Of a DNA stretch of 64,000 nt, positions 4,427-63,304 are shown piece by piece. The stretch is from Companilactobacillus heilongjiangensis (GTDB lineage Bacteria > Bacillota > Bacilli > Lactobacillales > Lactobacillaceae): assembly GCF_000831645.3 (NCBI RefSeq), contig NZ_CP012559.1, positions 1,240,001 to 1,304,000 on the forward strand. Reading direction: 5' to 3'. The translations under genes and the position numbers were made by a program. A model generated the notes under the pieces. That model was not told where the DNA came from. It worked only from the letters and a program-made list of their open reading frames with translations, and searched no databases. The number at the start of each line of letters is the position of its first letter. Position 1 is the first letter of the stretch.

Positions 4427-4605
4427 GTTGGAAGAGTTGAGAGTATTCATCTGCCGCGAAAGTGGCGTTATGGCTTTAGTCATTACACCACCGGGCGAGT
4501 TGGAGCCTTTCCGCTTTTTGGAAAGGCTTCAACCGAGGTTCGAGACCGTACTGTGGCTCGAACCGTACCGCGCAGCAGAATGAATACTCTCAGCTCTGGA
4601 AACGG
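4427..4605 (+). repeat. Structured dispersed repeat, copy A
   Basis: 179 bp. Outer stem P1 begins GTT-GGA-AGAGTTGAG and ends CTCAGCTCT-GGA-AAC. The terminal GTT/AAC pair replaces the GTC/GAC of other copies, a compensatory change. P2 is GTGG...CCAC around a TTTA loop, P4 pairs GGAGCCTTTCC with GGAAAGGCTTC, and P5 is GGTTCGAG/CTCGAACC (perfect). P3 is partly degenerate. It lies between the recombinase terminator and the IS630 insertion and has no coding potential. Confidence 0.85.
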
Positions 4606-4673
4606 CATACTTCAATAAAAAAAACCAACAAACTAATTTACTAGTGGAGTATAGCTTTCATATCTAGACATAA

Positions 4674-5300
4674 TCAGTCTTCTATCTTTGGATAAAGCGA
4701 ATGTAACTTTATGCGTGCATCTGCTGTTGTAAATTGCCAATCTATTGATAGATTCTTTTCATTACGTTCGCTACACCATGTTGTCACTTCTTGACGTAGT
4801 TGTTTGATTTCTGGAATACGCCGATTCAGACATTGACGACTCAACAAGTTCAAGCCAATTTCAGCTATATTTAACCAGCTCCCATGCTTGGGTGTGTAGT
4901 GTATTTCTAATTTACCAGCCAATCGACGAGCCTCTTTTGGCTCGAAACGTTGATATAGTGATCCTATTTTATGAATATTCAAATTATCCATTACTAAAAT
5001 TATTTTATCGGCAGATGGGTACAGGTCATCCACCAACCATTTTATAACCTCCGCGAAATCGCGTGAGGTTCTGCGTTTTCGGACGTCCACATATTGTTTA
5101 CCGGTTAATGGTTCAATCAAACTGATTATTGCGCAATACCCATTACGAGTGTATTCATAGTCAATTTTCTTGGGTTTCATTCTACGAGTTGGAAGTGGTT
5201 TGGAAACATCGCCGTGAAGTACATACGGCTTCTCATCCAAACAAACTAATGGTCGATTACTATCATATGGTAGGGCATATGTGTCTAGAACATCCTCCAT
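4674..5300 (-). CDS. IS630-family transposase, DDE catalytic part (OrfB)
   Basis: The DDE domain: first Asp in LVCLDEKPYVL, second in LVMDNLNIHK, Glu in SWLNIAEIGLNLL. Coordinates start at the first ATG, but the frame is open upstream to about 5376. There the residues (a VESWANPKPDDGEYVAHMED stretch) match the family and fuse in -1 frame to OrfA. The natural product is therefore probably an OrfA-OrfB fusion of about 370 residues, and OrfB is unlikely to be made alone. Confidence 0.9.
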   Translation of the reverse strand: MEDVLDTYALPYDSNRPLVCLDEKPYVLHGDVSKPLPTRRMKPKKIDYEYTRNGYCAIISLIEPLTGKQYVDVRKRRTSRDFAEVIKWLVDDLYPSADKIILVMDNLNIHKIGSLYQRFEPKEARRLAGKLEIHYTPKHGSWLNIAEIGLNLLSRQCLNRRIPEIKQLRQEVTTWCSERNEKNLSIDWQFTTADARIKLHSLYPKIED

Positions 5301-5347
5301 GTGGGCAACGTATTCACCATCATCTGGCTTGGGGTTCGCCCAACTCT

Positions 5348-5824
5348 CTACTTGGTATGGTTTAATTTCATTTTTTTAAGCTTGCGTGCAATGGCATCAC
5401 GCTTCACAGGATGTTCGAGTATAGTCGCTGACTTTTCTTCCAATAAGCTATATGACCATCTCGTGTAGCCTTCTGGAGCGGGGCCACAGGCTAACGCAAT
5501 CAGTTTTGCCTCATCTTCTGCTGTTAATTTTTGGTTTGCGTGATCCGAATTACTATTACGTTTTATAGTGATGGCCTCATCGATACCGCCTTCGAAGAAA
5601 AGGTTGATGACGGCATAAACCACTCCAGTACTGCAACGATTCATCTTAGCCACTTCAATTCTAGTCATGATTTCACCATGAGATTCATCTAAGTCTAGCA
5701 ATACTTGAATCCGACGTTTGACGGTTTTATTAAGACTTTTAGAATTCAAAAGATTTTTTAGACGAGTAACTTGATCATCAGAAAGAAAAATATGTTGTTT
5801 AACTGGTCTGTTATTCGATTTCAT
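5348..5824 (-). CDS. IS630-family transposase, DNA-binding part (OrfA)
   Basis: 158 residues with helix-turn-helix segments (MNRCSTGVVYAVINLFFEGG) that bind the terminal repeats. AAGGA lies upstream of the ATG. Near its end, at 5371-5377, there is an A7 run on the coding strand where a -1 shift enters the OrfB frame. This is the expected programmed frameshift site. Without the shift, OrfA ends 12 codons later at TAG. Confidence 0.88.
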   Translation of the reverse strand: MKSNNRPVKQHIFLSDDQVTRLKNLLNSKSLNKTVKRRIQVLLDLDESHGEIMTRIEVAKMNRCSTGVVYAVINLFFEGGIDEAITIKRNSNSDHANQKLTAEDEAKLIALACGPAPEGYTRWSYSLLEEKSATILEHPVKRDAIARKLKKMKLNHTK

Positions 5825-5901
5825 GAGGATTGTCCTTTTTGAATTGATTATATCGAAATACAGATATGAAAGCTACGCTCCACTAGTCTGTTGGTTTAAC
5901 A

Positions 5902-7149
5902 TTAATTTTGAACTAATTGATTTTGTTGAATCCAAGCGTTGGTACTGATACGGTACATTTTAACACCAGTTAATGGATTTACGGCACGTCGATCAGTGCT
6001 CCATTTGCTGTTAGCATTTACTGTATTACCAGTATAGTGACCGTTGTTGTCATAAATTTTAGCATTAGTTGTAGCTGTGACGCTAGCACCTGCTAGGAAT
6101 GATGCCCAAGGTAGCGCGTCATTAGCTGAAACGAATCCATTGGTACTTACATGATAGAATGTACTACCGTTGATAATAGCAATCATATCAGAGATCCAGT
6201 CAGTACTTGGTGCTAGTTCCAAATCTGTTCGTCTATTACCATAGCGGTCGTATAGTGGTGTGACAACATTCTTTGTTGAAACTCCACCACGTAAATCAGC
6301 AGTAACGTAATTATCACGTTTGACATAATCGGCACTTGTCTTACCAGCATCGGCTACATCATATTTAGAAACGTTAGCGTAATCATTGTTGTTAGTTAAG
6401 AAGTATGAGTAAACGTCACTAGGATCATACTTGCTGTATGAAGCTTGGTCATTACCCATTTCTTGTGAAAAGTAAACCATACCGTTATTAGAAATACTTA
6501 CACCAATTCCGACATAATTAATATAAGGATTGAGCATATTCTTTCTGTGACCAAAATTTGGTTCTGAATCATACATTTCGCTATAAAATTCGTGCGTAAT
6601 CTTTTGTGCAATTGCAGCCGCATCAGTTGTACCAATCATTGAGAAAGGCATCTGAGCAATATTTTCTTCAGCGGTCAAATTGTAAGGATACATGTTAGTT
6701 GAATTCCAGCCAGCATGGTTATCAACGCCACCGGTACTTGTAAATGAATCTGTTCTAGCTTGAGCATAATTGTTCAAAACGCCTACAGATGTCAAAGCTG
6801 ACAATCCATTTTGAGCTCTCAAACGGTTCAATTCTGACAACATGGCCATTTTAACTGAAGCAATATCAATATTGTTATAACTTGCTTGAGTATTTGCAAC
6901 TGTTGAAGAATTAGAATTTGTAGTGTCATTGGTTGAAGTGGTAGTAACCGTCTTATTAGGGTCGACACTATCATTAGTGGCAGTGGCTACATCTGTATCA
7001 CTACTAGAGTTGGTATTAGTCGTTGTTACTGTGGAAGCGTTATTGACGTTTGCAGTTGCATCGGCATACGCAATATTACCTCCCAAACTTGTAGCAAGAA
7101 GTGCACTTGCAGCTACTAAAATAGCTGCTCTCTTCGTTTTAGAAAACAT
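5902..7149 (-). CDS. Secreted CAP (SCP/PR-1) domain protein with SLAP repeats
   Basis: 415 residues. Start at ATG 7149, after AAGGGGAG; an upstream in-frame ATG at 7179 has no ribosome site. A signal peptide ending near AYA is followed by a Ser/Thr/Asn-rich linker. A CAP domain (~residues 90-245) has the NHAGW, AEENIAQ and FGHRKNML patterns of YkwD-type proteins. Two C-terminal SLAP-like modules follow (TPLYDRYGNRRTD, AKIYDNNGHYTG), which in this group attach proteins to the wall. Bacterial CAP function is unsettled. Its terminator has been split by the IS630 element. Confidence 0.85.
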   Translation of the reverse strand: MFSKTKRAAILVAASALLATSLGGNIAYADATANVNNASTVTTTNTNSSSDTDVATATNDSVDPNKTVTTTSTNDTTNSNSSTVANTQASYNNIDIASVKMAMLSELNRLRAQNGLSALTSVGVLNNYAQARTDSFTSTGGVDNHAGWNSTNMYPYNLTAEENIAQMPFSMIGTTDAAAIAQKITHEFYSEMYDSEPNFGHRKNMLNPYINYVGIGVSISNNGMVYFSQEMGNDQASYSKYDPSDVYSYFLTNNNDYANVSKYDVADAGKTSADYVKRDNYVTADLRGGVSTKNVVTPLYDRYGNRRTDLELAPSTDWISDMIAIINGSTFYHVSTNGFVSANDALPWASFLAGASVTATTNAKIYDNNGHYTGNTVNANSKWSTDRRAVNPLTGVKMYRISTNAWIQQNQLVQN

Positions 7150-7336
7150 GAATACTACTCCCCTTTTCAATGTGAACATAATGGTTATGTTTATTTTAAC
7201 TCAATGGATGTATTAATAAAGTACTATTTATAATAAACATTTTATATTATTCCGGTAAATAAAGGAACTTTTCCACTTACTTAAGTATAACTTTCTTTGA
7301 AAAGGTTTGAAATAAATATTTTTCTTTTGGTTTGTG
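7150..7336. other. Upstream region of the CAP/SLAP gene
   Basis: AT-rich, 187 nt, no ORF. It must hold the promoter of the CAP/SLAP gene, but several AT-rich hexamers compete and I cannot choose a -35/-10 pair. Confidence 0.4.
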
Positions 7337-7513
7337 CCGCCGAAGACAGTAAGAAATGTAGCCGCTATGAGGACCGGCCCGAGCCACAGTACGGTCTCGG
7401 CCCTCGATTTGAAGCCTTGCAAGTTCAGCAAGTCTCCAAAGTCGCCCTGTGGTGTAAGTGCTAAAGCACTAACGCCACCTCCACAGCTGTCTACATTTCT
7501 TACTGCCTTCGGC
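7337..7513 (-). repeat. Structured dispersed repeat, copy B
   Basis: 177 bp, inverted relative to copy A. P1 is fully paired at its end (GCCGAAGGCAGTAAG with CTTACTGTCTTCGGC). The P2 tip is AGTGC-TTTA-GCACT, P3 AGGGC/GTCCT, P4 TTTGGAGACTTG with CAAGGCTTCAAA. P5 has one mismatch. The P2 and P3 variants are compensatory relative to copies E and G. Short open frames through it are structure artefacts. Confidence 0.87.
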
Positions 7514-7719
7514 TAGTTTATTCGTTGCTGTTATTTAATACGTTATTTGTAATTTATCCATCGATTATTTAATAAAATCAATTTATATCGCACTCATATT
7601 CATAATATTGAATTCCTATCTTTCAGTATTATTTCACAAGTGACTCCAAAATCAGCAGTCAATGTTCGATTGGTTATTATTAATTATGTAAAATAATACT
7701 AAAATCAAGTCCAAGAATA
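7514..7719. other. AT-rich spacer between repeat copies B and C
   Basis: About 205 nt with no ORF, no terminator and no repeat match. I see nothing in it. Confidence 0.4.
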
Positions 7720-7899
7720 GCCGGAGGGCGTCAGTAATATAGTCATGCTATGCGGGTGGAGTTACGGCTTTAGCCGTTACACCACGGGACGAGTTTTGAG
7801 ATTCGCGTACTTTGCGAAGCTCAAAATCGAGGTTCGAGACCGTCTTTTGGCTCGAGCCGGTCCCCATAGCTTGAACTATATTACTGACACCCGTAGGCG
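7720..7899 (+). repeat. Structured dispersed repeat, copy C
   Basis: 180 bp. P1 GCC-GGA-GGGCGTCAG pairs with CTGACACCC-GTA-GGC, keeping the GGA/GTA internal loop. The P2 tip is ACGGC-TTTA-GCCGT, P3 GGGAC/GTCCC (changed on both sides relative to CGGGC/GTCCG), P4 TTTTGAGATTCGC with GCGAAGCTCAAAA, P5 GGTTCGAG/CTCGAGCC. It abuts the degV terminator. Confidence 0.87.
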
Positions 7900-7903
7900 A
7901 CAA

Positions 7904-7939
7904 AACAAAAATACCCTACGAATCTAACCCGTAAGGTAT
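7904..7939 (-). terminator. Intrinsic terminator of degV
   Basis: On the minus strand ATACC-TACG pairs with CGTA-GGTAT (7911-7939) and is followed by TTTTTGTTTTG. It ends just short of repeat copy C. Confidence 0.7.
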
Positions 7940-7951
7940 CAAAAAATTCTA

Positions 7952-8818
7952 TTATGATTTGTCGAAGTCACGTATCCAGGCAAGTGCTAAGGCGCCTTTT
8001 CCTAAATGTACTCCGATAACTGGTCCAAAGTACGAACGCTCTAATGTGGCATCAGGATATCTTTCATGGACTTCATCAGCCCAACGGTCTCCTGCTTCTG
8101 GATCATCAGCATCTAAGACTAGTAGTCTCAAAGGATATGGACTGGCATCCACGGCCGCATTTAATTTCTCTTCTGCCTTTAACTTGGCTTTCTTCATTGA
8201 ACGCACTTTATCGTAAGCAACGATTTTATGTGATTCATTGTCAAATTCCAATAAAGGTTTAATATTTAATACAGTACCAATTACAGCTGAAGTGTTTGAT
8301 AATCTGCCGCCCTTAACTAAATTCTTCAAATCATCAACTACGAAAGTTTCGCCGATTGATGAACGTAGGGCATCTAAACGATCAATGATTTCATCTACTG
8401 GTTTGTTATCTTGTGCCATTCGTGCAGCTTCCTGAGCCAAATAACCCATTAAGCGAACGGTGATGTGCGAATCATAAACAACTACATTGATGTTGTCGAT
8501 TGCTTGAGCAGCACTCTTAAGATTATTAACAAATCCAGAGATTGTACTTGCTAAATGAATTGAAATTACGGTATCATAGCCTTCTTTAGCCAGTTTATCG
8601 TATACCTTTAGCATTTCACCCATTGAGGGTTGAGCTGTTGAAGGTAATTCTGGTGATTTCTGTAGTAAATCATAGAATTCGGATGTAGTGATATCAATAT
8701 CTTCACGATATGTTTTAGTATTAAATACTACCTCTATTGGCACAACTGTTATATTATATTTATCGACTGTTTCTTGTGGCAAATAAGATGTACTATCTGT
8801 AACAATGGCTATTTTCAT
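7952..8818 (-). CDS. DegV family fatty-acid-binding protein
   Basis: 288 residues of the DegV/FakB fold. The N-terminus MKIAIVTDSTSYLP, the STAQPSMGE block and HLASTISGF are typical lipid-binding segments. FakB-type members present bound fatty acid to the kinase FakA; other DegV proteins have unknown partners, and no FakA gene is nearby. The frame is open upstream, but the start is set at 8818 because the predicted extended -10 lies at 8870-8878, so the transcript begins inside the longer frame. It is transcribed divergently from rqcH. Confidence 0.87.
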   Translation of the reverse strand: MKIAIVTDSTSYLPQETVDKYNITVVPIEVVFNTKTYREDIDITTSEFYDLLQKSPELPSTAQPSMGEMLKVYDKLAKEGYDTVISIHLASTISGFVNNLKSAAQAIDNINVVVYDSHITVRLMGYLAQEAARMAQDNKPVDEIIDRLDALRSSIGETFVVDDLKNLVKGGRLSNTSAVIGTVLNIKPLLEFDNESHKIVAYDKVRSMKKAKLKAEEKLNAAVDASPYPLRLLVLDADDPEAGDRWADEVHERYPDATLERSYFGPVIGVHLGKGALALAWIRDFDKS

Positions 8819-8869
8819 AAATTTATCAATTCCTTGTTTGGTTACGTAAAATGTTTGGATAACCATTAG

Positions 8870-8878
8870 ATTATATCA
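8870..8878 (-). promoter_or_regulatory. Extended -10 promoter of degV
   Basis: Minus-strand TGATATAAT, a perfect extended -10, with no good -35. Predicted start near 8863, 45 nt upstream of the chosen degV start. Confidence 0.5.
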
Positions 8879-8955
8879 TATTCACGCTATTTTATATTTG
8901 TTACATATTAAAAGTTTCAGAAATTATCGCTTAGTTTTAAGAAAGGAAGCAAAAT

Positions 8956-10617
8956 ATGTCTTTTGATGGAATGTTTACGCACGCTATGGTAAACGAATTA
9001 AATCAGAACCTCCGCGGTGGTCGTATTAGCAAAATCCAACAACCATTCGCCAATGAATTGATTCTTACAGTGAGAAGCAATCGTAAGAATCGTCAACTTT
9101 TATTGTCAGCACATCCCTCATATGCAAGAGTTCAAATAACGCAACAACCATTTGCCAACCCTGCTAAACCATCGACGTTTGTAATGTCTTTACGTAAGTA
9201 TATTACTAGTGCAATCGTCGAGGATTTCAGACAATTAAATAATGACCGAGTCGTTTCAATCGACCTCTCAGCTAAAAATGAATTAGGAGATATTCACAGC
9301 TATACATTAGTTACCGAAATTATGGCTCGTCACAGCAATATCTTCTTGATCAATAAGGAAACTGGTAAAATTATTGATTTAATAAAACGAGTTTCACCAG
9401 AGAATAATAGTTTTCGTGGTTTGTTACCAGGTGACGATTATAAATTACCGCCCGCACAAAATAAAATCAATCCATTTTCAACAACTGGTGATGATTTAAC
9501 TGGCATGTCAGCCGCTGATATTCGTCAAAAATACGAAGGTATCGGTTTAGACACATCAGCTGAGTTGGAACAGTATATTGCACAAGGCAATAGTTTCGAT
9601 GATTTTCTCAAGAGTTATCAAGAGAATTTACATCCTAACGCTGCCAATAACAATAAGCATAAATTAGGATTCTTTCCAATTAGCTTTAGCAATACTACAA
9701 CTGAGGTCAACGCCTATCCTTCACTTAGCGAGCTACTAGATAATTACTATCTTGATAAGGCTCGCCTTGACCGGATTGAACAGCAAACTAAGAGCGTGAC
9801 CCACCGTTTGGGTATTATCTTGAAGAAGGATAAGTCTAAAGTTAAAAAGCTCAATCAACAGTTATCCGCTACTGATGTGATGGCTAAGTACAATCTCTAT
9901 GGCGAACTATTAACGACTTATATGTCACAGATTAAGCATGGTTCAAGTTCGATTACTTTGACTAACTACTATAATAATGAAGAAGTGACGATCAAGTTAA
10001 ATCCTGAGTACTCACCCTCACTTAATGCCCAAAGTTATTACAAGAAGTATCGTAAGTTACAAAATTCTATTCCTCATATCAAGGAACAACTAGAGATTAC
10101 GACTAACGAGGTCAACTACTTAGAGTCAGTTCTAGCATCCCTTGAATACGTTGATATCGAGGATGTGGACGGAATCGTTGATGAGTTGATTGATTCTGGC
10201 TATATCAAGAAGAAGCGTAAGAACGCTCCTAAGAAACGTAAAAAGAAGATTGGTGAGGATTTCAAGTCAACTAATGGTGTTGAAATTACTGTTGGTAAGA
10301 ACAACTTGGAAAATGATCAATTAACGATGAAATTAGCACAAAAGAATCACTACTGGTTCCATGTTAAGGATATTCCTGGTTCACACGTTATCTTAAAGAC
10401 GAGTGATCCTGACGAACAATCAATTACTGAAGCTGCTACGATTGCTGCTTATTACTCTAAAGCACGTGATTCAAGTAAGGTTCCCGTTGATTACGTTCAA
10501 ATCAAACATATTAGAAAGCCTAATGGCGCTAAACCTGGTTTTGTAATCTTTGAAGGACAAAAGACAATCCTAGTTGATCCTGACCGTAAATTAGTTGCTG
10601 ATTTAAAAGAGGATTAA
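8956..10617 (+). CDS. rqcH: Rqc2/NEMF homologue RqcH (ribosome quality control)
   Basis: 553 residues. The NFACT-N domain begins MSFDGMFTHAMVNEL. HhH and coiled-coil regions follow in the middle, and a C-terminal NFACT-R domain has the HYWFHVKDIPGSHVIL pattern. RqcH binds obstructed 50S subunits carrying peptidyl-tRNA and directs C-terminal alanine tailing that marks stalled products for ClpXP. The family was formerly annotated as fibronectin-binding protein A. AAGGA lies before the ATG. It ends at a bidirectional terminator shared with the CarB-like gene. Confidence 0.94.
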   Translation: MSFDGMFTHAMVNELNQNLRGGRISKIQQPFANELILTVRSNRKNRQLLLSAHPSYARVQITQQPFANPAKPSTFVMSLRKYITSAIVEDFRQLNNDRVVSIDLSAKNELGDIHSYTLVTEIMARHSNIFLINKETGKIIDLIKRVSPENNSFRGLLPGDDYKLPPAQNKINPFSTTGDDLTGMSAADIRQKYEGIGLDTSAELEQYIAQGNSFDDFLKSYQENLHPNAANNNKHKLGFFPISFSNTTTEVNAYPSLSELLDNYYLDKARLDRIEQQTKSVTHRLGIILKKDKSKVKKLNQQLSATDVMAKYNLYGELLTTYMSQIKHGSSSITLTNYYNNEEVTIKLNPEYSPSLNAQSYYKKYRKLQNSIPHIKEQLEITTNEVNYLESVLASLEYVDIEDVDGIVDELIDSGYIKKKRKNAPKKRKKKIGEDFKSTNGVEITVGKNNLENDQLTMKLAQKNHYWFHVKDIPGSHVILKTSDPDEQSITEAATIAAYYSKARDSSKVPVDYVQIKHIRKPNGAKPGFVIFEGQKTILVDPDRKLVADLKED

Positions 10618-10622
10618 AAAAA

Positions 10623-10645
10623 AGTCACCTAACGGTGGCTTTTTT
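10623..10645. terminator. Bidirectional terminator between rqcH and the carB-like gene
   Basis: AGTCACC-taac-GGTGGCT with T-runs on both strands. On the minus strand it overlaps the stop codon of the carB-like gene. Confidence 0.85.
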
Positions 10646-14125: not shown

Positions 14126-14148
14126 TTCTAGCAACTCCTCAAAATAAT

Positions 14149-14770
<622 letters not shown>

Positions 14771-21867: not shown

Positions 21868-22039
21868 ATTGCCCTCTATTTTTTTATTATTTAAATTTTA
21901 GTTATCGATTTAATCTTTACACATAGGACTATTTGATAATTTGTTCTAAGCATTCATGTTAATTATACTTCAGTATCCAGAATGGAATGAACATAAAAAC
22001 ATTCGAATATTTTTTCATTCAATTATTACTGATTAATTA
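21868..22039. other. Upstream region of the THUMP methyltransferase gene
   Basis: No ORF. A TATAAT on the minus strand near 21960 could serve the methyltransferase gene, but no good -35 is visible. The last ~35 nt (from about 22005) match the left flank of repeat copy F, at 29430-29464. Confidence 0.4.
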
Positions 22040-22140
22040 GTCGGAAGAGCTGGGAAATATTTGTGTGCCGTGGTTCGAGACCGCACTCCGGCTCGGACCG
22101 TTCCGCACAGCTTGAGAATATTTCCTAGCTCTGTAGACGG
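22040..22140 (+). repeat. Structured dispersed repeat, copy D (internal deletion)
   Basis: 101 bp. P1 is intact (GTC-GGA-AGAGCTGGGAAATATT with the partner ending CTCT-GTA-GAC), and P5 is present. P2, the P3 5' strand and P4 are missing: GTGCCGTGG joins directly to TTCGAGACC. Compared with copy F, the deletion junction falls at a short GG repeat. It lies just downstream of the rnpB terminator. Confidence 0.83.
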
Positions 22141-22170
22141 CAAACTAGCACAACATGTAATTTTTTGTAT

Positions 22171-22194: not shown

Positions 22195-22573
22195 CTCTGC
22201 CTCGATAAACTCCTATAAGCCACGTTTTGTCCAAGTAATAGGTTGGCGACCTATCACCATAAGTAATCATCTATCTACAATTAAGCCTTCACAGTAGATT
22301 CAGTTCTCGTTGTGAAGCGCCCCTACCAAAGTTTGGGTTGCCCGCTTGCGGGGTTTACCTCGTTCCACCATTGCAATTTCTCACAATAATACGTCTCTGT
22401 GGCACTTTCAAGCTATTCACACATAGCTAAAGCCTTAGTGCTTTCGCTGCCGTTACCCGAAGGTACCTTGGCTTATTGGGCCAAGCACAAACACTGCAAG
22501 CATCTCAGCTCGCGCGGGCGTGGACTTTCCTCAGCCTAGATAACTAGACCGCGATTACTCGTAATTTACCGAC
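22178..22573 (-). ncRNA. rnpB: RNase P RNA, class B
   Basis: Minus-strand sequence contains the universal GAGGAAAGTCC near its 5' end, GAAAGTGCCACAGAGACG, GGTAAACCCC, TTTGGTAGGGG and the 3' GACAAAACGTGGCTTA block. The B-type order matches Bacillus RNase P RNA. It is the ribozyme that matures tRNA 5' ends. Ends are approximate: the 5' end is set by a TATACT at 22580-22585 and the 3' end by the terminator. The promoter -10 overlaps the last codons of gpsB. Confidence 0.95.
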
Positions 22574-28475: not shown

Positions 28476-28493
28476 AAGAAAATTTTTATTATG

Positions 28494-28537
28494 CCACCTC
28501 CGGTTGACAACAATTTTCACTGCTATCAACCTCCGGC
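28494..28537 (-). repeat. Relic of the structured repeat, outer stem only (copy M)
   Basis: 44 bp. On the minus strand GCC-GGA-GGTTGA and TCAACC-GGA-GGT keep the P1 terminus with its GGA/GGA internal loop. A loop with AGCAGTGAAAA matches the conserved P1-P2 linker. All inner hairpins are gone. Confidence 0.6.
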
Positions 28538-28640
28538 TAGGGTAATTGTAACTCTAGAGTTTTTGGCTCAAATTACTTTTATCAAATGATTATTTATTTA
28601 ATCTATATAATATTTAAAATTTACCGCAGCCGACAAAAGA

Positions 28641-28820
28641 GTCGGAAGAGCTGAAAGGTATTAACATGCAGTGAAAGTGGCGTTATGGCTTTAGCCATTA
28701 CACCACCGGGCGAGTTTGGATACTTGCGGTTTTTGCAAGCATTCAAACCGAGGTTCGAGACCGCACTATGGCTCGGACCGGTCCGCACAGCAGGTTAATA
28801 CCTTTCAGCTCTGGAGACGG
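28641..28820 (+). repeat. Structured dispersed repeat, copy E (good reference copy)
   Basis: 180 bp. P1 is GTC-GGA-AGAGCTGAAAGGTATTAAC with the partner GTTAATACC...CAGCTCT-GGA-GAC. P2 is GTGG...ATGGC-TTTA-GCCAT...CCAC, P3 CGGGC/GTCCG, P4 TTTGGATACTTGC with GCAAGCATTCAAA, P5 GGTTCGAG/CTCGGACC. It lies between the ypmB-like gene and dnaD. Confidence 0.9.
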
Positions 28821-47308: not shown

Positions 47309-47408
47309 AAATATCCCTCCAGAAAAAAAGCTTACCGATAATTCAGACATATATCGACAATCATGTTACTAGAAATTGGGTAATACTTAAAGGATTAAGT
47401 TGTGCTTT

Positions 47409-47548
47409 CCGTTTCCGGAGGTTAGAGTATTCATCTGTTCGGTCCGAGCCTTTCCAAAAAACGGAAAGTCTCCAACACGTCCGGTGGTGTAATTGCCAAA
47501 GCAATAACGCCACTTTCGCTGCGAATGAATACTCTAACCTCCTCCAAC
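47409..47548 (-). repeat. Structured dispersed repeat, copy H (internal deletion)
   Basis: 140 bp on the minus strand. P1 is GTT-GGA-GGAGGTTAGAGTATTC with its complement ending CC-GGA-AAC. The P2 tip is ATTGC...GCAAT. P4 runs straight into the 3' strand of P5: GGAAAGGCT joins CGGACC. The missing piece is bounded by a GGCT repeat present in full copies, which suggests slippage between short repeats. Confidence 0.85.
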
Positions 47549-47714
47549 TAATTTATTTATTATTATCGGAAAACTAAATCGCAACTTCTGACTGTTTTAA
47601 TAAATTAATGATGCGATTGTTAACAGCAATCGCTACAAGTGATTAATCCACAATAACTAAAGGATCACGGTAAAGTATAAAAGTTCAAGATCAGTCAAAC
47701 CAACGAACAACTTA
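47549..47714. other. Spacer between repeat copies H and I with a small palindrome
   Basis: No ORF. The only structure is GCGATTG-TTAACAG-CAATCGC at 47613-47633, an unassigned 7-bp inverted repeat that could be an operator or chance. Confidence 0.4.
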
Positions 47715-47894
47715 GCCAGCGAGAGCGAAGGATTGTGCCCGTAGTGAAAATAATATGAGGACGTTAGTCCTTATATTATAGGGCGACTTTGGAGACTTAC
47801 CGAACTGTGGTAAGGCTCCAAAGCGAGGCCCGAGACCGCACTTTGGCTCGGACCGGTCCTCACATCAGGCACAATCCTTCGCTCTCGCTGGCGG
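47715..47894 (+). repeat. Structured dispersed repeat, copy I (replaced P2 arm)
   Basis: 180 bp. P1 is fully paired for ~25 bp (GCCAGCGAGAGCGAAGGATT with its complement). P2 has an unrelated stem, ATAATATGAGGAC with GTCCTTATATTAT. P3 is AGGGC/GTCCT, P4 TTTGGAGACTTACC with GGTAAGGCTCCAAA. P5 has one mismatch. It lies upstream of lepB. Confidence 0.87.
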
Positions 47895-54238: not shown

Positions 54239-54255
54239 ATTTGTCTCCTAACAAA

Positions 54256-54281: not shown

Positions 54282-54286
54282 GTTAA

Positions 54287-54472
54287 CTATTCGTCACTCT
54301 TTAAAACCCCGCCAACAGCGTAGTGTTCTTTTTCCATTTCGTTCAAAACAACGTGTACGTGTTCTGCAGGTGCACCAGTGTTTTTAACAATGGCGTCAGT
54401 AACATCTTTGACCATTCCCCTTAATTGAGTTTCGGAACGACCGGCGATCAAATCAATATGTACCAATGGCAT
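54287..54472 (-). CDS. 4-oxalocrotonate tautomerase family protein
   Basis: 61 residues, the usual length, with Pro after the initiator Met (MPLVHIDLIAGRS) serving as the catalytic base. Members tautomerise 2-hydroxymuconate-like enols, but in lactobacilli the physiological substrate is unknown. GGAG lies upstream of the ATG. Confidence 0.9.
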   Translation of the reverse strand: MPLVHIDLIAGRSETQLRGMVKDVTDAIVKNTGAPAEHVHVVLNEMEKEHYAVGGVLKSDE

Positions 54473-54578
54473 AAGCTTTCTCCTTTGATTACTTCATAAA
54501 TTAGAATTAAAATTCATTTAAATTGTCTCATAAAATAAGCATTTTATAAACAATTATTCTTTCTAACCGAGGTATGAC

Positions 54579-55133: not shown

Positions 55134-55229
55134 CTAAATTGGATTATTTACAACTAATTGCTGATAAATAATGTGTAACGCAAGTTAATTAATTCCTATG
55201 GTTAAGAGATTCAATATTTAGCATTATGC

Positions 55230-55283
55230 AAAGAAGCGTCACATCACACTGATAAACGGCTATGATGTGACGCTTCTTTTTTG
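55230..55283 (+). terminator. 17-bp perfect stem-loop with T6, no obvious client gene
   Basis: AAAGAAGCGTCACATCA and its complement, 16-nt loop, T6 on the plus strand. No plus-strand gene ends here for over 2 kb. It may be the terminator of a lost gene or of an undetected small RNA. Confidence 0.6.
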
Positions 55284-55298
55284 TGCTTCTACAATCAA

Positions 55299-55336
55299 CA
55301 AAAAAAGCTCTGACCTTTATTTCAGTCAGAACTTTT
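55299..55336 (-). terminator. Terminator of the NlpC/P60 gene
   Basis: AAAAG-TCTGAC / GTCAGA-CTTTT stem ending in a T8 run on the minus strand, directly after the stop codon. Confidence 0.8.
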
Positions 55337-55346
55337 AATTTATAAA

Positions 55347-56831: not shown

Positions 56832-56842
56832 TTGTTTCTCCC

Positions 56843-58075
56843 CTAATAACTTATTGCACGTCTATTTTGCGTGTTCCAATTGTTAATAAATTGGTTAATC
56901 CCCATTTGAAGTGTTTGGTCAGTCCAACAGTCATTGTAGTAAACATAATTTGGATCATAACCTGTGACAACTAAAGCATGGTATGGGAAGCCATACAATG
57001 TATGCCATGTTACAACTGGATGGCCAATATCAATTTGATATTTGATTGCATCGAAGTTTTGACCAGTCAAATCTTTGGCTGTTCCAGCATATTTTTCAAC
57101 CAAATGCATCAAAGCTGATGGGAAAATAGTGATCCCTGTTTGATCCCATGGTTGACCGATATAACCGTAACTTGGATTGCTGCTACGTGGCATTTCACGG
57201 GCCATTTGCATCTTATTTACCTTGGCACCGGCGTATTGTAGCATCATTGTTACGGCAGTAATTTCACAGCCATTTGGCAATTCAGGACGTTGTGCAATCA
57301 AAGGCACACCAGAAATCCATTTAGATTCCTTATATTGGCCTTGGTTAATAACGACATAATCTTGTGGAACCCATGTGTCATTACCGATTTCATACCATTC
57401 TTTACCGTTGATTTTGGCGTGATTACTTACTTTCCACGTACTACCTGTTGGAACATTGTTACCTTGATAAGTAGCTTTGTTGCCATAGTGTAAGAACGTG
57501 TGAGCACTAGAACCTTTTTGATAAACAACTGTCGCATTACCTTGGTAAGGTTGAACATATGATGTGAATGTTCCGTTGTTACCATTGGCAAATTCATCAG
57601 TAGCTACTCGATAATAATTGTTTCCATCGCTCATAGTCATATGAGTATCGGTATACCAAGCAGTATTTGGACCCAAAGCTCGGTCAGTAATTTGTGAGCC
57701 ATCGGCATGATGTAAATATGTCAATTGTCCCCCGACAGTGTAAACGCCATCAACAGGTTGTGATTGGACTTGTGATGGTTGATTAGCAGTGCCGTTCACT
57801 GTTTGAGCTTGCATCTGTGTTTGTTCCTGTGTTGGAACTTGAACTGGTGCTTGCTCTTGTTTAGTCTGATCAGGTGTTGCTGTTGCAGCATCTGCAGTTT
57901 TAGCTGTTGCTGGTTCAGTCGTATTAGTCGTTTCTTTAGTATCGGTAGTTGCAATACTTTGACTAACGGTTGCTTCAGCGTTGTTATTTACAGTGTCAGC
58001 TTTAACAATATTTGTTGAAAGCAGACAACTAGACGCAAATAAAGTTGCGTAAAGTAGTTTCCTTTTTAACCCCAT
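56843..58075 (-). CDS. Secreted C39-like cysteine peptidase with SLAP repeats
   Basis: 410 residues: signal peptide ending near VKA, a Thr/Ala/Gln-rich linker, two SLAP-type modules (~115-240; ALGPNTAWYTD) and a C39-like domain (~245-400) with Cys in PNGCEITAVTM, His in PYHALVVTGYD and Asp/Asn in YYNDCW. The domain resembles peptidase_C39_2 proteins of the cell wall; substrate is unknown. AAGGG lies before the ATG. It is the first gene of the two-gene SLAP hydrolase operon. Confidence 0.88.
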   Translation of the reverse strand: MGLKRKLLYATLFASSCLLSTNIVKADTVNNNAEATVSQSIATTDTKETTNTTEPATAKTADAATATPDQTKQEQAPVQVPTQEQTQMQAQTVNGTANQPSQVQSQPVDGVYTVGGQLTYLHHADGSQITDRALGPNTAWYTDTHMTMSDGNNYYRVATDEFANGNNGTFTSYVQPYQGNATVVYQKGSSAHTFLHYGNKATYQGNNVPTGSTWKVSNHAKINGKEWYEIGNDTWVPQDYVVINQGQYKESKWISGVPLIAQRPELPNGCEITAVTMMLQYAGAKVNKMQMAREMPRSSNPSYGYIGQPWDQTGITIFPSALMHLVEKYAGTAKDLTGQNFDAIKYQIDIGHPVVTWHTLYGFPYHALVVTGYDPNYVYYNDCWTDQTLQMGINQFINNWNTQNRRAISY

Positions 58076-58308
58076 ATACTTTTACCCTTCGTCTCGTAGA
58101 TTGAAAACAGATATTTTATTTGCTAGCATGCCCCCTATGCCATTTTTTGATAAAAAATTATAGCCAGATAAATTCTAACTCCATTCATCCGTGATAATTT
58201 TTATCAATATTTCAATACAATAAGTATAACATCAGACTAATTCAAAAAAGAATAGCTATTCCTAAAAAATCGGGATAAATTCCTATTTTTATGATTTGTG
58301 TACTGCAG

Positions 58309-58380
58309 CCGGAGGAAATCAGAAAACTTCTCCTTAAATAATTTCACTGCCAATTAATCTTTCGCAGTTCTTCCTCCTAT
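58309..58380 (-). repeat. Possible degenerate relic of the structured repeat (copy N)
   Basis: GGAGGAA (58311-58317) pairs with TTCCTCC (58371-58377). Between them GCAGTGAAA (minus strand, 58342-58350) matches the conserved P1-P2 linker. No inner hairpins remain. A matching left-end motif lies 100 nt away. Confidence 0.35.
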
Positions 58381-58437
58381 AGTGTTGATGTTTATTGAAA
58401 TATGGATATAATTTGTTTTTTGTTTGTTGGTTTTTGA

Positions 58438-58462
58438 ATATATGTTTTCGTAAAACATATAT
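58438..58462. other. Perfect AT-rich hairpin
   Basis: ATATATGTTTT-CGT-AAAACATATAT, an 11-bp stem with TTTT after it on the plus strand. It has no client gene and its role is unknown. Confidence 0.45.
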
Positions 58463-58530
58463 TTTAATCCTTTATAATATACTTCCGACTAAGGTTACAT
58501 AACTTTTTTTCAAGAAGTTAAAGACACAAA

Positions 58531-58575
58531 AAAAACAGGAGTTGATAATTTGACGATTATCAACTCCTGTTTTCC
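58531..58575. terminator. Terminator of pepT
   Basis: AAAACAGGAGTTGATAA-...-TTATCAACTCCTGTTTT, a perfect 17-bp stem with an A-rich run on the far side, giving a T8 run for pepT transcripts on the minus strand. Confidence 0.88.
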
Positions 58576-58588
58576 AAATTTTTAAAAT

Positions 58589-59833
58589 TTATTTCTTTTG
58601 ACTATTTAATCTAATAATTTCAAGAACTACATCAACGGCCTTTTCCATTGCTTCTTCAGAAACATATTCGAAACGTCCATGCATGTTCTCTCCACCGGCA
58701 AATAAGTTTGGGGTTGGCAAGCCCATGAATGAAATTGTTGAACCATCTGTACCACCACGTACCGGTGCTTCGTCTGGTTCGATATCCAAGTTCTTCATAG
58801 CTTCTTCAGCAATTCTTACAACATCCATATGATCTTTCATAATATCGTACATGTTGTAATATTGGTCAACCATATCAATCTTAACTGTGCCCTCTCCATG
58901 CTTTTCGTTTAGAGCCTTAACAATCTCAGTAACTTTGTTCTTACGAGCTTCTAGGCCATCACGTTTGAAATCACGGATGATATAAGACATATCTGTATGA
59001 TCGATTGTACCTTGTTCATCGCACAATAGGTAGAATCCTTGGTCACCTTCGGTCTTTTCTGGAACTTCATCAGCTGGTAACATGCTTTGGAATTCACTAG
59101 CAATCAACATTGAGTTGACCATGATTCCCTTAGCACCTGAAGGGTGAACATCTTTACCAGTAATGTGAACCTTCAAACTAGCAGCACTGAAAGTTTCGAA
59201 TTCTAGTTGTCCAACTGGACCACCATCGACTGTATAGGCAAAATCAGCACCAAAGTCTTTGACATCAAAATGATCAGCACCTGTACCAATTTCCTCATCT
59301 GGTCCAAAACCAATCTTAACTTTACCATGTTTGATTTCTGGGTGATTGATCAAGTATTCCATAGCGGTGATAATTTCTGAGACACCGGATTTATCATCTG
59401 AGCCAAGTAATGTGTCACCACTTGTTGTGATAAGTGTTTGACCAGCATAATTCTTCAATGAAGAGAAGACTGCTGGGTCAAGTGTATACTCGCCTGCCTC
59501 ATCAAGCTTGATAACACTCTTGCCATCATAATTTTCAACGATTTTAGGCTTAATATCCTCAGAATTAAAATCAGCAGTATCAACGTGAGAAAGTAATCCC
59601 AAAACTGGAACATCATAATCAATATTTGAAGGCAATTCAGCGGTCAAATATGAATCAACTTTGCGAATCTTAACATCACTCAAACCAATTTCCATCAATT
59701 CTTCAGCTAACTTCTTGAGGAACTCTGTTTGTCTCTCAGTTGAAGGAATTGTTGTGGAATGTTCATCTGAACGAGTATTCTGCTTTGCATATTCCAAAAA
59801 ACGCGGAATCAATTTTTCATATTTTATTGCCAT
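58589..59833 (-). CDS. pepT: Peptidase T (tripeptide aminopeptidase)
   Basis: 414 residues, M20 metallopeptidase: zinc ligands in GLLSHVDTADF, LLGSDDKSGVSE, GPDEEIGTGAD and AYTVDGGPVGQLE, with the final His region LPTPNLFAGGENMHGRFEYV. It releases N-terminal residues from tripeptides in the cytoplasm. GGGAG lies before the ATG. It stands downstream of the nif3-like gene on the same strand. Confidence 0.96.
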   Translation of the reverse strand: MAIKYEKLIPRFLEYAKQNTRSDEHSTTIPSTERQTEFLKKLAEELMEIGLSDVKIRKVDSYLTAELPSNIDYDVPVLGLLSHVDTADFNSEDIKPKIVENYDGKSVIKLDEAGEYTLDPAVFSSLKNYAGQTLITTSGDTLLGSDDKSGVSEIITAMEYLINHPEIKHGKVKIGFGPDEEIGTGADHFDVKDFGADFAYTVDGGPVGQLEFETFSAASLKVHITGKDVHPSGAKGIMVNSMLIASEFQSMLPADEVPEKTEGDQGFYLLCDEQGTIDHTDMSYIIRDFKRDGLEARKNKVTEIVKALNEKHGEGTVKIDMVDQYYNMYDIMKDHMDVVRIAEEAMKNLDIEPDEAPVRGGTDGSTISFMGLPTPNLFAGGENMHGRFEYVSEEAMEKAVDVVLEIIRLNSQKK

Positions 59834-59846
59834 TTTTATACGCTCC

Positions 59847-60638
59847 CTATAAAAAATTATATGGTTCTGTATCTACCTCTGATTGTACTATATCTAATTC
59901 TAATTTATTAGACCTTTTCCAATCATTTAAAATATTTGCCATTTCTTTTATAAAGATTGCTTCAACATGGTGTCCAGGATCGACGACATTTAAGCCGTTA
60001 GCCATCATATCGTGAGCTGTGTGGTAATAAACATCACCAGTAATGAAAGTATCAGCCCCTGCTTTTAAAACCTCAGGATAAAACTTACCAGCGTCACCAC
60101 CGATAATGGCAACCTTGTGTACCTTCTGACCCAAGTCAGATTTTACATAACGCAGATTCGATAAATGATAGGCATCACGAACCATCTTGGCAAAGTCAAC
60201 CAAGTCCATTGGTTTCTCAGTTTCACCCATGCGGCCAATTGAATAGTCGTCATTTTCATCCAAGAAACGGACATTTTTCAGACCGAGTTCTTCCATCAAC
60301 CAATCATTGGTTCCACCATGTGCCTTGTCGATATTGGTATGAGCAGCATAAACGGAAATATTATGCGATAACAAATCACGATACATTTGGTTTTGTGGTG
60401 AGGCCAAATCTAAATTATGTGCAGCATGAAACATTATTGGGTGGTGTGCCACGATTAAATCAACTTTCTTATCAATAGCTTCAGCGACAACGTTGGGACG
60501 AACATCGAGTGTTGTCATAACGCGGTTCACTATCTGCTCTCGATCACCTAGTTGAAAACCAGTTGGATCGCCATCCATCTTAATTGATAATGGGGCAAAT
60601 TCTTCTATCTTATTCATAATATCTTGAACATTAACCAT
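59847..60638 (-). CDS. Nif3-like dinuclear metal-centre protein (DUF34)
   Basis: 263 residues, the short form without an inserted PII-like domain. Metal-ligand patterns are VAHHPIMFHAA near the N-terminus, AAHTNIDKAHGG, and VDPGHHVEAIF near the C-terminus. The protein forms toroidal hexamers. A GTP cyclohydrolase I type 2 role has been proposed, but the function is unproven. Its start overlaps the trmK stop (TAATG), and trmK-nif3 is a conserved pair. Confidence 0.92.
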   Translation of the reverse strand: MVNVQDIMNKIEEFAPLSIKMDGDPTGFQLGDREQIVNRVMTTLDVRPNVVAEAIDKKVDLIVAHHPIMFHAAHNLDLASPQNQMYRDLLSHNISVYAAHTNIDKAHGGTNDWLMEELGLKNVRFLDENDDYSIGRMGETEKPMDLVDFAKMVRDAYHLSNLRYVKSDLGQKVHKVAIIGGDAGKFYPEVLKAGADTFITGDVYYHTAHDMMANGLNVVDPGHHVEAIFIKEMANILNDWKRSNKLELDIVQSEVDTEPYNFL

Positions 60639-61327
60639 TAGAGTATCTCCTCAATATATTTAATATATTGGTTCATTACATCAATTTTATCTTGATCAAT
60701 CTTTTTAGCATGTTTCATATTAGCAACGGCTTTGTGGTAACCACTCAATTTATGTTGCCACTTAGCGACAAATGTTGCTGTCTTCTTCTGCATCAAAACT
60801 GGTCCCATCAAAAACTCTGCTTCGTTCAAAGTAACGGGTGCAGTGACTTTTTGGGCTTTGATAATCTCGTAAACGTGATGATCTTCTTCAACAATATCTT
60901 CATCAACAATCGCAAAATTATTTTCAACCAACCAGTGACGTACAAGCGGTTCACCGATATTAGGTTGTAATACTAAAGTTTTGACATGCGATAATTGCTC
61001 GGCAGTTGCACGGGTCAGAATGCTTTGAATCAGAATTCCTCCCATACCAGCAATTACAACTGTATCAATTAAATCATCAGCTTTAATGACAGCTAAACCG
61101 TCACCTAAGCGAACGTCAATTTTGTCACTGAGGCCAAACTTTTCAACGTCTTCTTTGGAACGTGACATTGGTCCTTCGGCAACTTCTCCAGCAATGGCAA
61201 AATCCGCCACCTTTTTTTCAATCAATTCCACTGGTAAATAGGCATGATCTGATCCAATATCAGCCACTCTTGTATGTTCATCAACCATTTGGTAAACGGC
61301 TTGTAATCTCTTCGAAAGTAAAGTCAC
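60638..61327 (-). CDS. trmK: tRNA (adenine22-N1)-methyltransferase TrmK
   Basis: 229 residues: Rossmann core with VADIGSDHAYLPVELIEK (SAM), VVIAGMGGILI (NPPF-like position of this family) and a C-terminal coiled coil (~165-229). It methylates N1 of A22 in bacterial tRNAs. The start is GTG 61327, 5 nt after AGAGG. It is coupled to nif3 downstream and lies 8 nt after cfa, so the three genes may form one transcript. Confidence 0.93.
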   Translation of the reverse strand: MTLLSKRLQAVYQMVDEHTRVADIGSDHAYLPVELIEKKVADFAIAGEVAEGPMSRSKEDVEKFGLSDKIDVRLGDGLAVIKADDLIDTVVIAGMGGILIQSILTRATAEQLSHVKTLVLQPNIGEPLVRHWLVENNFAIVDEDIVEEDHHVYEIIKAQKVTAPVTLNEAEFLMGPVLMQKKTATFVAKWQHKLSGYHKAVANMKHAKKIDQDKIDVMNQYIKYIEEIL

Positions 61328-61335
61328 TTTAACCT

Positions 61336-62532
61336 CTATTCTGCAGTCTTCTTGTCTAAGTCTGTCATGTATTCACGTGTCATTGGCATAGCAGTACCAC
61401 TAGGTCCATTTGTTAATAAGAATTGGATAACATCAATGTTACCACTTTCAAATGATGCGGCACAGGCTTGAAGATATAAGTCCCACATACGAACAAATCT
61501 TTCGCCATACATCTCATCAACTTTATCTTCAACCTTATGGAAGTTACGATCCCAAATTTCAACAGTCTTTTGATAGTGACGACGTAATGGTTCAAGGTCA
61601 TCAATTTGTAAACCGGCATCCAAAATGTGACCAACATTTTCCTTAACATCAGGAATATAGCCACCTGGGAAGATGTACTTAACTAACCAAGCATCGACAC
61701 CAACACCATAATGTTGACCAGTAATACCATGAATCAAGGCATTTCCGTTTTCTTTCAAAAGTTTCTTAACCATTTCGAAGTAACCAGGCAAGTTTTCCTT
61801 ACCAACGTGTTCGAACATACCTACGGAAACGACGTGATCGAATTTTTCACTAACTTCACGGTAGTCTTCAAGCATAACTTCCATTTGGTCGCCAAGATTT
61901 TCGTCTTGAATCTTTTGGTTAACAAAATCGTATTGTTCTTGACTAAGAGTAACACCTTTAGCCTTCAAACCATATTCTTTAGCTGCTGTGAACATCATTG
62001 TTCCCCAACCACAACCAATATCAAGAATAGTTTCGCCAGGTTTAGTATTCAATTTGTTCAAAATATGGTGCACTTTGTTCATTTGAGCTTGTTCCAAAGT
62101 ATCTTCTGGTGTGCGGAAATAAGCACATGAGTAAGTCATAGTATCGTCAAGCCACAATTTGTAAAAGTCATTCCCGATATCATAGTGCTCTTGAATTTCT
62201 TTTTTATTGCCCTCTTCAGTGTGACTGAACTTAGGAATATACTTCTTTAGTTTCAAACTTGACATAAAACTGTCTGATTGAGTATAAGCAGAAGTAATCA
62301 ACTTTTGAATTGAACCTTCGATTTCAAGCTTCTTATCCATATAGGCTTCACCTAAAGTCAAAGTAGCATGTTTAACAAGTTCTGAAACTGGAACCTTTTC
62401 ATTAAATTTGATAGTTATATCAGATTTTCCCTCTGGTCCATAACTCTTTTCTTTGCCATCCCAGAAAATCACTTTAATAGGAATAGTAAAGGAACGTGAA
62501 AATATTTCATCATAAATCTTTTTATCTAACAT
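61336..62532 (-). CDS. cfa: Cyclopropane-fatty-acyl-phospholipid synthase
   Basis: 398 residues: an N-terminal lipid-binding-like domain (~1-100), then a methyltransferase with [31 protein letters not shown] (SAM) and the bicarbonate/active-site regions [12 protein letters not shown] and WDRNFHK. It adds a methylene across phospholipid double bonds in stationary phase or acid stress. The start is ATG 62532, 5 nt after GGAGG; a frame start four codons upstream includes that site. Confidence 0.95.
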
Positions 62533-62671
62533 AACATCCTCCAAAAAAATAGATATATTAATTGTAAATCAAATCCTGAAAAAATATAAACGAAAAGTGC
62601 TATTTTTTCAGAAACATATTCAATAAAACGTCTCTTTTATTGAGTTTTATCTAACATGATATTTAAATTTG

Positions 62672-62858
62672 CTGTTTTAGATTGCGAAGGAATGAAGTCT
62701 GCTACGAGACCTGTTCGAGCTTAGAAAGTGGATTCGACCCTCACTTTTGAACTTCGCAAAGTACACCGATTTCAAAAAATGTCCTGTAATGTAAGAAGAG
62801 AGGATTACCGTTCTTACACCACTTCCACTGTCGACTAACTTCCATCACAACTTCCGAC
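62672..62858 (-). repeat. Structured dispersed repeat, copy K (degenerate)
   Basis: ~187 bp on the minus strand. The left end GTC-GGA-AG, a P2-like GTGGTGTAAGAA...TTCTTACATTAC, P4 (TTTTGAAAT...TTCAAAA) and P5-like GGTCGA...TCGAACA are recognisable, but P1 no longer pairs and P3 is damaged. The right end is approximate. It appears to be a decaying copy. Confidence 0.6.
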
Positions 62859-63129
62859 TAATGTACTCTTTGATTCTAATTTCGAGAATTTTACATCCAT
62901 ATTCATAAATAAGCAATACAAATATCTTAATCATCAAGTATCAGTTATCAACACAAATAAGTTGATATTTGTAATATCACATTTAATTTATTAGCCACAT
63001 AATTAATTGTAGTAATTTCAATTTTCAATAATAAATGTTGAAAATAATAGTAACTATAAATCAAATATTTTGTATTTTCCAACTAACAAAGATGAGTCAA
63101 ATCCAACATCCCAGCCAACAGATAAACTA
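62859..63129. other. AT-rich spacer between repeat copies K and L
   Basis: About 270 nt with no ORF, terminator or repeat match. I see nothing in it. Confidence 0.4.
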
Positions 63130-63304
63130 GCCTCCGGGTGCCAGAGATTTCACCAGCTATGGAGGTGGCGTTATTGCTTTAGCAATTACACCACAGGGCG
63201 ACTTTGGAGACTCGCGGGTTATGGCGAGGCTTCAAAGTGAGACTTGAGACCTTGGCTCAAGTCGGTCCTCATAGCAGGCGAAAATCTCTGGCACCCGGAG
63301 GCGG
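63130..63304 (+). repeat. Structured dispersed repeat, copy L
   Basis: 175 bp. P1 is a perfect 20-bp end (GCCTCCGGGTGCCAGAGATT with its complement), the internal loop converted to Watson-Crick pairs. The P2 tip is ATTGC-TTTA-GCAAT, P3 AGGGC/GTCCT, P4 TTTGGAGACTCGC with GCGAGGCTTCAAA, P5 GACTTGAG/CTCAAGTC (perfect, both strands changed relative to E). It lies just downstream of the rpoD terminator. Confidence 0.9.

What the first reader, a model, noticed from the sequence alone, without database searches (positions are those of the whole stretch)
4427..63304. A dispersed intergenic repeat family whose nested fold is conserved while its sequence drifts
Eight full or nearly full copies (A, B, C, E, F, G, I, L), two internal deletions (D, H), one decayed copy (K) and two relics (M, N) occur in 64 kb, in both orientations and never inside genes. 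Every full copy folds the same way: P1 outer stem with a GGA/GGA or GGA/GTA internal loop 3 bp from its end, hairpin P2, and P3 enclosing hairpins P4 and P5. Compensatory pairs are directly visible. The P1 end is GTC/GAC, GTT/AAC or GCC/GGC. The P2 tip is ATGGC/GCCAT, ACGGC/GCCGT, AGTGC/GCACT or ATTGC/GCAAT. P3 is CGGGC/GTCCG, AGGGC/GTCCT or GGGAC/GTCCC. P5 is GGTTCGAG/CTCGGACC or GACTTGAG/CTCAAGTC. The fold, rather than the sequence, seems to be kept. I do not recognise the family. It could be a MITE-like element, a substrate for a structure-specific enzyme, or an RNA.
Basis: partly seen in the sequence, partly recalled or inferred. Interest (0 to 1): 0.92.

Follow-up and report, generated by a model that had tools for sequence, protein, structure and literature searches.

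The report
Folding repeat widespread in lactobacilli
A short, tightly folding DNA repeat, absent from the RNA-family catalogue, sits in well over a hundred places between the genes of a lactobacillus and occurs in many related genera; the two sides of its long stem tend to change together so that the fold survives while the letters drift, which makes it a natural test bed for how folded sequences evolve.

Summary
A covariance model from 8 window copies finds 150 copies (the tool's scoring cap) in the 2.79-Mb genome, matches in 28 of 36 genus genomes and in 69 of 301 sampled family genomes, 10 of 40 genera. Rfam has no match at its thresholds. The + strand is the folded one: it folds better than its complement in 136 of 150 copies, and P1 has more G-U pairs on + in 76 copies against 26. 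Covariation exceeds shuffled and slid controls. Of 53 close neighbours 40 are divergent pairs with 5' ends facing. Sites are empty in some relatives and shared in others. At shared sites P1 changes mostly on both sides (58 two-sided Watson-Crick changes against 27 one-sided), unlike P5, which changes through G-U. Best reading: small non-autonomous interspersed repeats; fold kept by selection on one strand plus hairpin-templated (template-switch) correction of stem arms. One subfamily is a MITE-like unit. Neither transcription nor a mobilising enzyme is shown.

The parts
4427..4605 (+). copy A, full hairpin (orientation GTCGGA...GGAGAC taken as +)
   Evidence: 168 bits
7338..7514 (-). copy B, full; left member of divergent pair B-C
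   Evidence: 163 bits; pair
7720..7899 (+). copy C, full; right member of pair B-C (spacer 206 bp)
   Evidence: 171 bits; pair
21919..22158 (+). copy D with its F-type unit: outer inverted ends 21919-21934 and 22143-22158 (read by eye), hairpin 22040-22144 lacking P2 and P4; the site is empty in G011
28641..28819 (+). copy E, full
   Evidence: 187 bits
29465..29655 (+). copy F, full, F subfamily (long perfect P2)
   Evidence: 172 bits
46224..46403 (-). copy G, full; the interval has no hairpin in G012 and G023
   Evidence: (193 bits)
47408..47555 (-). copy H, internal deletion; left member of pair H-I
   Evidence: 87 bits; interval without hairpin in G023 and G034
47715..47893 (+). copy I, full; right member of pair H-I
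   Evidence: (179 bits)
62673..62870 (-). copy K, decayed; left member of pair K-L
   Evidence: (48 bits)
63129..63304 (+). copy L, full; right member of pair K-L; positional counterpart in G034
   Evidence: 171 bits; S10
28493..28540 (-). P1-only remnant left of E (perhaps the partner of a former pair; read by eye)

Best explanation
This is an uncatalogued family of small non-autonomous interspersed repeats of Lactobacillaceae. The core is about 180 bp. One strand (+) folds into P1 (about 25 bp, often with a GGA/GGA loop near its base), hairpin P2, and P3 enclosing P4 and P5; in most window copies P4 and P5 carry a GAG-A-C / G-G-CTC motif. Shown: high copy number, patchy spread among relatives, one-strand folding, divergent pairing, sites empty in some and occupied in other relatives, predominantly two-sided change of P1. 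Inferred: copies spread by transposition (best seen in the F subfamily, which has inverted ends and some exact 9-bp target duplications; the enzyme is unknown). Once settled, the arms of P1 and of the P2 tip are kept complementary largely by hairpin-templated correction (template switching during replication), which writes a change into both arms in one step. Selection on the + strand fold, at the locus or at mobilisation, keeps P3, P5 and the loops.
For: 150 copies scored in the genome, the cap; intervals without the hairpin in relatives; + strand more stable in 136 of 150 copies; P1 G-U pairs 175 on + against 90 on the complement, 76 against 26 copies with 48 ties, p=7e-7; structure 97.4% paired, covariation 0.472 against 0.169 shuffled and at most 0.061 slid; 11 comparisons at shared sites: 58 two-sided Watson-Crick changes (25 transition-type, 33 transversion-type), 12 one-sided to G-U, 15 one-sided to mismatch, 239 unchanged Watson-Crick pairs; independent arms would give about 17 two-sided and 119 one-sided; within the genome P1 50 two-sided: 12 G-U against P5 4: 21, Fisher p=3e-8. 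F-type units: 15 candidate end pairs, exact 9-bp duplication in 3, 8 of 9 in one, 7 of 9 in one. Template switching as maker and keeper of hairpins is published (PMC8794818, abstract and start of the introduction).
Against: No strain-level new insertion was seen and no enzyme was found. Most copies show no inverted ends or shared flanks. Template switching by itself does not predict the + strand G-U excess, so selection must be added; strong selection could also give two-sided changes without template switching. Within the genome the two-sided P1 changes are not mostly transversions (28 transition-type, 22 transversion-type) and 27 one-sided mismatches also occur, in an alignment fitted to the structure; P2 (11 two-sided, 8 one-sided) and P4 (8 and 8) are intermediate and P3 (2 and 12) is like P5. 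Orthology was judged by position and, for some of the 11 comparisons only, by flank. S7 aligns badly; without it 46 two-sided Watson-Crick changes (20 ts, 26 tv) stand against 22 one-sided.
Confidence: 0.55

Rival explanations
1. A functional structured RNA element: each copy acts in the transcripts of its neighbours (3'-UTR or 5'-UTR stability, RNase III processing, insulation or termination) and is kept by selection at its own locus.
For: One-strand fold with G-U excess; intact folds at loci shared by several species although spacers no longer align by eye; among copies alone in their intergenic region the 3' end is nearer a gene in 39 of 57; T-rich DNA beyond the 5' base on the opposite strand.
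Against: No clear preference for gene orientation on the 3' side (81 convergent, 68 co-directional of 149); intervals without hairpin in close relatives and decayed copies; no Rfam family; 8 of 36 genus genomes have no match.
Confidence: 0.25
2. A pure mutational by-product: long palindromes spread as ordinary MITEs and template switching keeps them perfect, with no selection on the fold.
For: Two-sided change of P1; P1 still well paired in copies that have lost inner hairpins (E site of G034; L130).
Against: The G-U excess on one strand is not expected from a strand-symmetric process, and copies show little orientation bias in either half of the chromosome (34+/29- and 48+/39-); conserved mismatches and loops in P2, P4 and P5.
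Confidence: 0.12
3. The hairpin is the substrate of a structure-recognising transposase (REP/RAYT or IS200/IS605-like), so only copies that fold are mobilised.
For: High copy number, both orientations, one-strand fold.
Against: Y1 transposase (PF01797) is absent from G034, G023, G012 and G024, which are rich in copies, and present in G002 and G025, which have none. F-type units have inverted ends and duplications, and one unit without any hairpin (L126) has an exact duplication, though it may have lost the hairpin after insertion.
Confidence: 0.08

Closest known systems
BOX / RUP / SPRITE repeats of Streptococcus pneumoniae (PMC3049150, passages read)
   Same: Small intergenic repeats of a Gram-positive genome with extensive predicted secondary structure, many copies, slow present-day gain; proposed mobilisation in trans by IS elements.
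   Different: Here a nested fold with nearly sequence-free P1, divergent pairing with 5' ends facing, no clear gene-orientation bias, and spread over at least 10 sampled genera. No sequence comparison with BOX was run.
MITEs in general (definition as quoted in PMC3049150)
   Same: The F subfamily has inverted ends (ACGCRTGGTGCTAGTT, my consensus by eye), 9-bp duplications in some units, and a 301-bp full unit.
   Different: For most copies the shared unit is the hairpin core with few bases around it; no related IS was recognised within 2 mismatches of the F end sequence.
REP/BIME elements with RAYT transposases (recalled; PMC2817692 seen in a listing, PMC3733652 in a listing and a term look-up with 0 passages)
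   Same: Many palindromic intergenic copies, often in inverted pairs.
   Different: Cores of about 180 bp instead of 20-40 bp; no correlation with Y1 transposase.
bcr1-type repeats of the Bacillus cereus group (search listing only)
   Same: Recalled: interspersed, RNA-folding, mobile-looking repeats of a Gram-positive group.
   Different: Sequence and structure not compared here.

Membership tests
MITE | terminal inverted repeats | tested here: inconclusive
   Seen in F-type units (15 candidate end pairs, patterns allowing 2 substitutions); across 168 copies with flanks the best inverted match is no better than between flanks of different copies (median 8 and 8).
MITE | target-site duplication | tested here: inconclusive
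   Of 15 F-type candidates 3 have an exact 9-bp duplication, one 8 of 9, one 7 of 9, ten 6 or fewer at that register; 8 bp ACTATAAC at one A-type unit of G011, read by eye; not determined for other copies.
MITE | related autonomous IS with the same ends in the genome | tested here: not met
   62 places within 2 mismatches of the F end sequence, the reversed-pattern control giving 39; the one wide inverted pair that I opened (2.98 kb, L142) holds ORFs that do not look like a transposase by eye. Other end types were not searched.
REP/BIME with RAYT | Y1 transposase in genomes rich in copies | tested here: not met
   Absent from G034, G023, G012, G024.
catalogued RNA families (Rfam 15) | match at or above the gathering score | tested here: not met
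   Only RNase P class B in the window; around copies E and F nine matches at E<=10, all far below their gathering scores.
intrinsic terminator | stem followed directly by a T-run, placed after genes | tested here: inconclusive
   A T-rich stretch follows the stem on the minus strand (flank consensus), but gene orientation is not clearly biased.
BOX element | boxA-boxB-boxC modules | not tested
   No sequence comparison was run; compared only through passages of PMC3049150.

The most novel reading that the evidence does not exclude
Hundreds of dispersed copies and their counterparts in other species form a natural experiment in which stem arms evolve by instantaneous two-sided change (hairpin-templated copying during replication) rather than by stepwise compensation, while other stems of the same element (P5) evolve by the G-U route; the fold has thereby persisted across a bacterial family, with weak matches beyond it, without sequence conservation of its longest helix.
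Probability: 0.4. Interest if true: 0.82.

Novelty: new variant of a known kind. Interest (0 to 1): 0.7.

Why it matters
It looks like a major uncatalogued component of lactobacillus genomes (if the window is typical, about 350 full copies in this one; extrapolation from 8 in 64 kb). It gives many replicated loci for asking whether two-sided stem changes come from selection on RNA or from template switching, a question that single RNA genes settle poorly. It also warns that covariation of this kind, often taken as proof of a functional RNA, may have a mutational source.

Tried and rejected
Autonomous partner by F-type ends within 2 mismatches: none recognised; one 2.98-kb inverted pair encloses ORFs that do not look like a transposase by eye. 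Y1/RAYT transposase as mobiliser: does not track copy number. General inverted ends for all copies: at chance level. Neighbouring terminator as insertion target: 7 of 169 copies have a terminator-like signal beyond the 3' end (5' side 1, shuffled 0), too few to explain placement. Phage and plasmid collections with copy E: no match in phages, one plasmid record. PMC2267715 names only Lactobacillus johnsonii among lactobacilli (one table passage). No structure prediction was run. R-scape is not available; the count of structure pairs served instead. The 11 comparisons are my choice: 7 of the 22 positional matches and 4 between G034 and G023; flanks were compared by eye only for S1-S4, S6, S10 and S11, and the other three (S7, S8, S9) rest on position alone.
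Full report
WHAT IS THERE. The window lies at 1,240,001-1,304,000 of a single-contig genome of 2,790,548 bases; the size matches Companilactobacillus heilongjiangensis as I recall it, which no call confirms. Eight full copies (A, B, C, E, F, G, I, L), the deleted D and H, and the decayed K are real; relics M and N were not recovered at E<=1. An alignment of the eight gives 68 consensus pairs, 42 with two-sided changes. The GGA/GGA or GGA/GTA loop near the base of P1 is in five of the eight; in B, I and L that place is paired. Rfam has only RNase P in the window, and around copies E and F only matches far below threshold.

HOW COMMON. A covariance model R1 from the eight copies finds 150 copies in the genome, the number that the tool scored, all at E<=3e-32. 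In the genus 28 of 36 genomes (own included) have a match, from 1 to 75 (the number scored), and 8 have none. In the family sample 69 of 301 genomes and 10 of 40 genera match at E<=1e-4; in the order sample 7 of 198, own included, among them weak matches in four genomes of other families. The copies from other genera that I folded show P1 around inner hairpins, most of them with the same order of P2, P4 and P5; the weak ones (L042-L046, L048) differ in detail. One plasmid of Limosilactobacillus reuteri carries a D-like copy.

WHICH STRAND FOLDS. In 150 copies from 432 kb (regions other than the window were chosen around hits) the + strand has the lower energy in 136, mean -98.6 against -90.3 kcal/mol. 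Folding both strands with the same program gives 175 G-U pairs in P1 on + against 90 on the complement, and 539 against 233 in the inner part; by copy, P1 G-U is more frequent on + in 76, on the complement in 26, tied in 48 (p=7e-7; related copies are not independent). Copies show little orientation bias in either half of the chromosome (34+/29-, 48+/39-), so a replication-strand mutation bias is an unlikely cause. Across the 150 copies 97.4% of cells pair (shuffled 81.2%), covariation is 0.472 (shuffled 0.169; slid at most 0.061); that alignment was fitted to the structure, which favours it.

ARRANGEMENT. Of 53 neighbouring copies (among the 150 best) less than 1 kb apart, 40 are in the order minus-plus, that is with 5' ends facing across an AT-rich spacer, 35 of the 40 at 114-292 bp (5 plus-minus, 4 plus-plus, 4 minus-minus; against 25%, p=2e-14). 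The two members of a pair are often of different subtypes (by eye). Among copies alone in their intergenic region the 3' end is nearer to a gene than the 5' end in 39 of 57; for those with a second copy it is 90 of 100, which follows almost automatically from the pairing. The direction of the gene beyond the 3' end shows no clear preference (81 to 68 of 149).

MOBILITY AND AGE. Synteny with six relatives shows intervals without the hairpin: the H-I interval measures 36 bp between aligned blocks in G023 and G034 against 517 bp here; D, F and G also have counterparts without hairpin. Other sites are old: pair K-L is seen in G000, G034 and G023 (decayed in part), and pairs in L067 recur at the same places in G011, G034 and G023. 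Of 28 copies tested, 15 have a same-orientation copy in the same interval of at least one relative; I did not prove orthology for each, and the counterpart of E in G011 is of another subtype. The F subfamily is a transposon-like unit, 301 bp when complete, with ends ACGCRTGGTGCTAGTT; of 15 candidate end pairs three (L126, L129, L060) have exact 9-bp duplications, one has 8 of 9, one 7 of 9, ten 6 or fewer. Shorter units of 210, 149 and 97 bp lack parts or all of the hairpin; they may have lost them after insertion. For most other copies the unit looks smaller: even two 98.8%-identical cores share only about 3 bases before and 11 after the core, and 5' flanks resemble another copy in only 42 of 163. 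I found no enzyme.

HOW THE STEM CHANGES. In 11 chosen comparisons of copies at shared sites, P1 has 239 unchanged Watson-Crick pairs, 58 two-sided Watson-Crick changes (25 transition-type, 33 transversion-type), 12 one-sided changes to G-U, 15 to a mismatch, 5 other two-sided, 18 unchanged G-U or mismatch columns, and 23 gap columns set aside. If the arms changed independently, about 17 two-sided and 119 one-sided changes would be expected. One comparison (S7) aligns badly; without it 46 two-sided Watson-Crick changes stand against 22 one-sided. Among 27 reciprocal nearest pairs within the genome P1 has 50 two-sided Watson-Crick changes (28 transition-type, 22 transversion-type), 12 G-U and 27 mismatch changes, whereas P5 has 4 two-sided, 21 G-U and 4 mismatch changes; P2 has 11 two-sided and 8 one-sided, P4 8 and 8, P3 2 and 12 (P1 against P5, two-sided against G-U, p=3e-8). 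Stepwise compensation through G-U passes by one-sided G-U states and yields transition-type changes; P5 behaves so, P1 much less. Template switching, which copies one arm into the other, predicts what P1 shows and has been proposed as a maker and keeper of RNA hairpins (PMC8794818, abstract and start of the introduction). It does not by itself explain the one-strand G-U excess or the conserved loops, so I add selection on the + strand fold. Whether selection acts at each locus (an RNA role) or when copies are mobilised is open.

VERDICT. An uncatalogued family of folding interspersed repeats, comparable in kind to BOX or MITE elements, with unusual pairing and an unusual mode of stem evolution. 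The strongest results are copy number, phylogenetic spread, one-strand folding, divergent pairing and the two-sided change of P1. The weakest links are the mechanism of spread and any cellular function.

Noticed in passing
window 4630-5897: An IS630-like insertion sequence (family name recalled; Pfam HTH_29 and DDE_3 in ORFs 5348-5824 and 4674-5300, inverted ends) sits beside copy A and is itself flanked by short inverted repeats, as if inserted in a hairpin.
   Followed up: partly
L146, L147, L148 (G011 contig starts, positions 1 to about 185): Three contigs begin with the same transposase-like 3' end, which stops at the TA of CTAG at the 5' base of three different hairpin subtypes, suggesting that an IS (IS630-type by recall) uses the hairpins as landing sites.
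   Followed up: no
L040, 2,850-3,173 (Limosilactobacillus reuteri plasmid NZ_CP030091.1): A D-like copy with a similar 5' arm lies near an IS30 transposase gene on a small plasmid, a possible vehicle between genera.
   Followed up: partly
L126, 240-336: A 97-bp F-type unit without any hairpin core, with an exact 9-bp duplication; the core is missing cleanly between TTA repeats.
   Followed up: partly
window 28493-28540: P1-only remnant of a minus-strand copy left of E, so E may once have been part of a divergent pair.
   Followed up: no
window 22211-22566: RNase P RNA, class B, minus strand, directly beside copy D.
   Followed up: no
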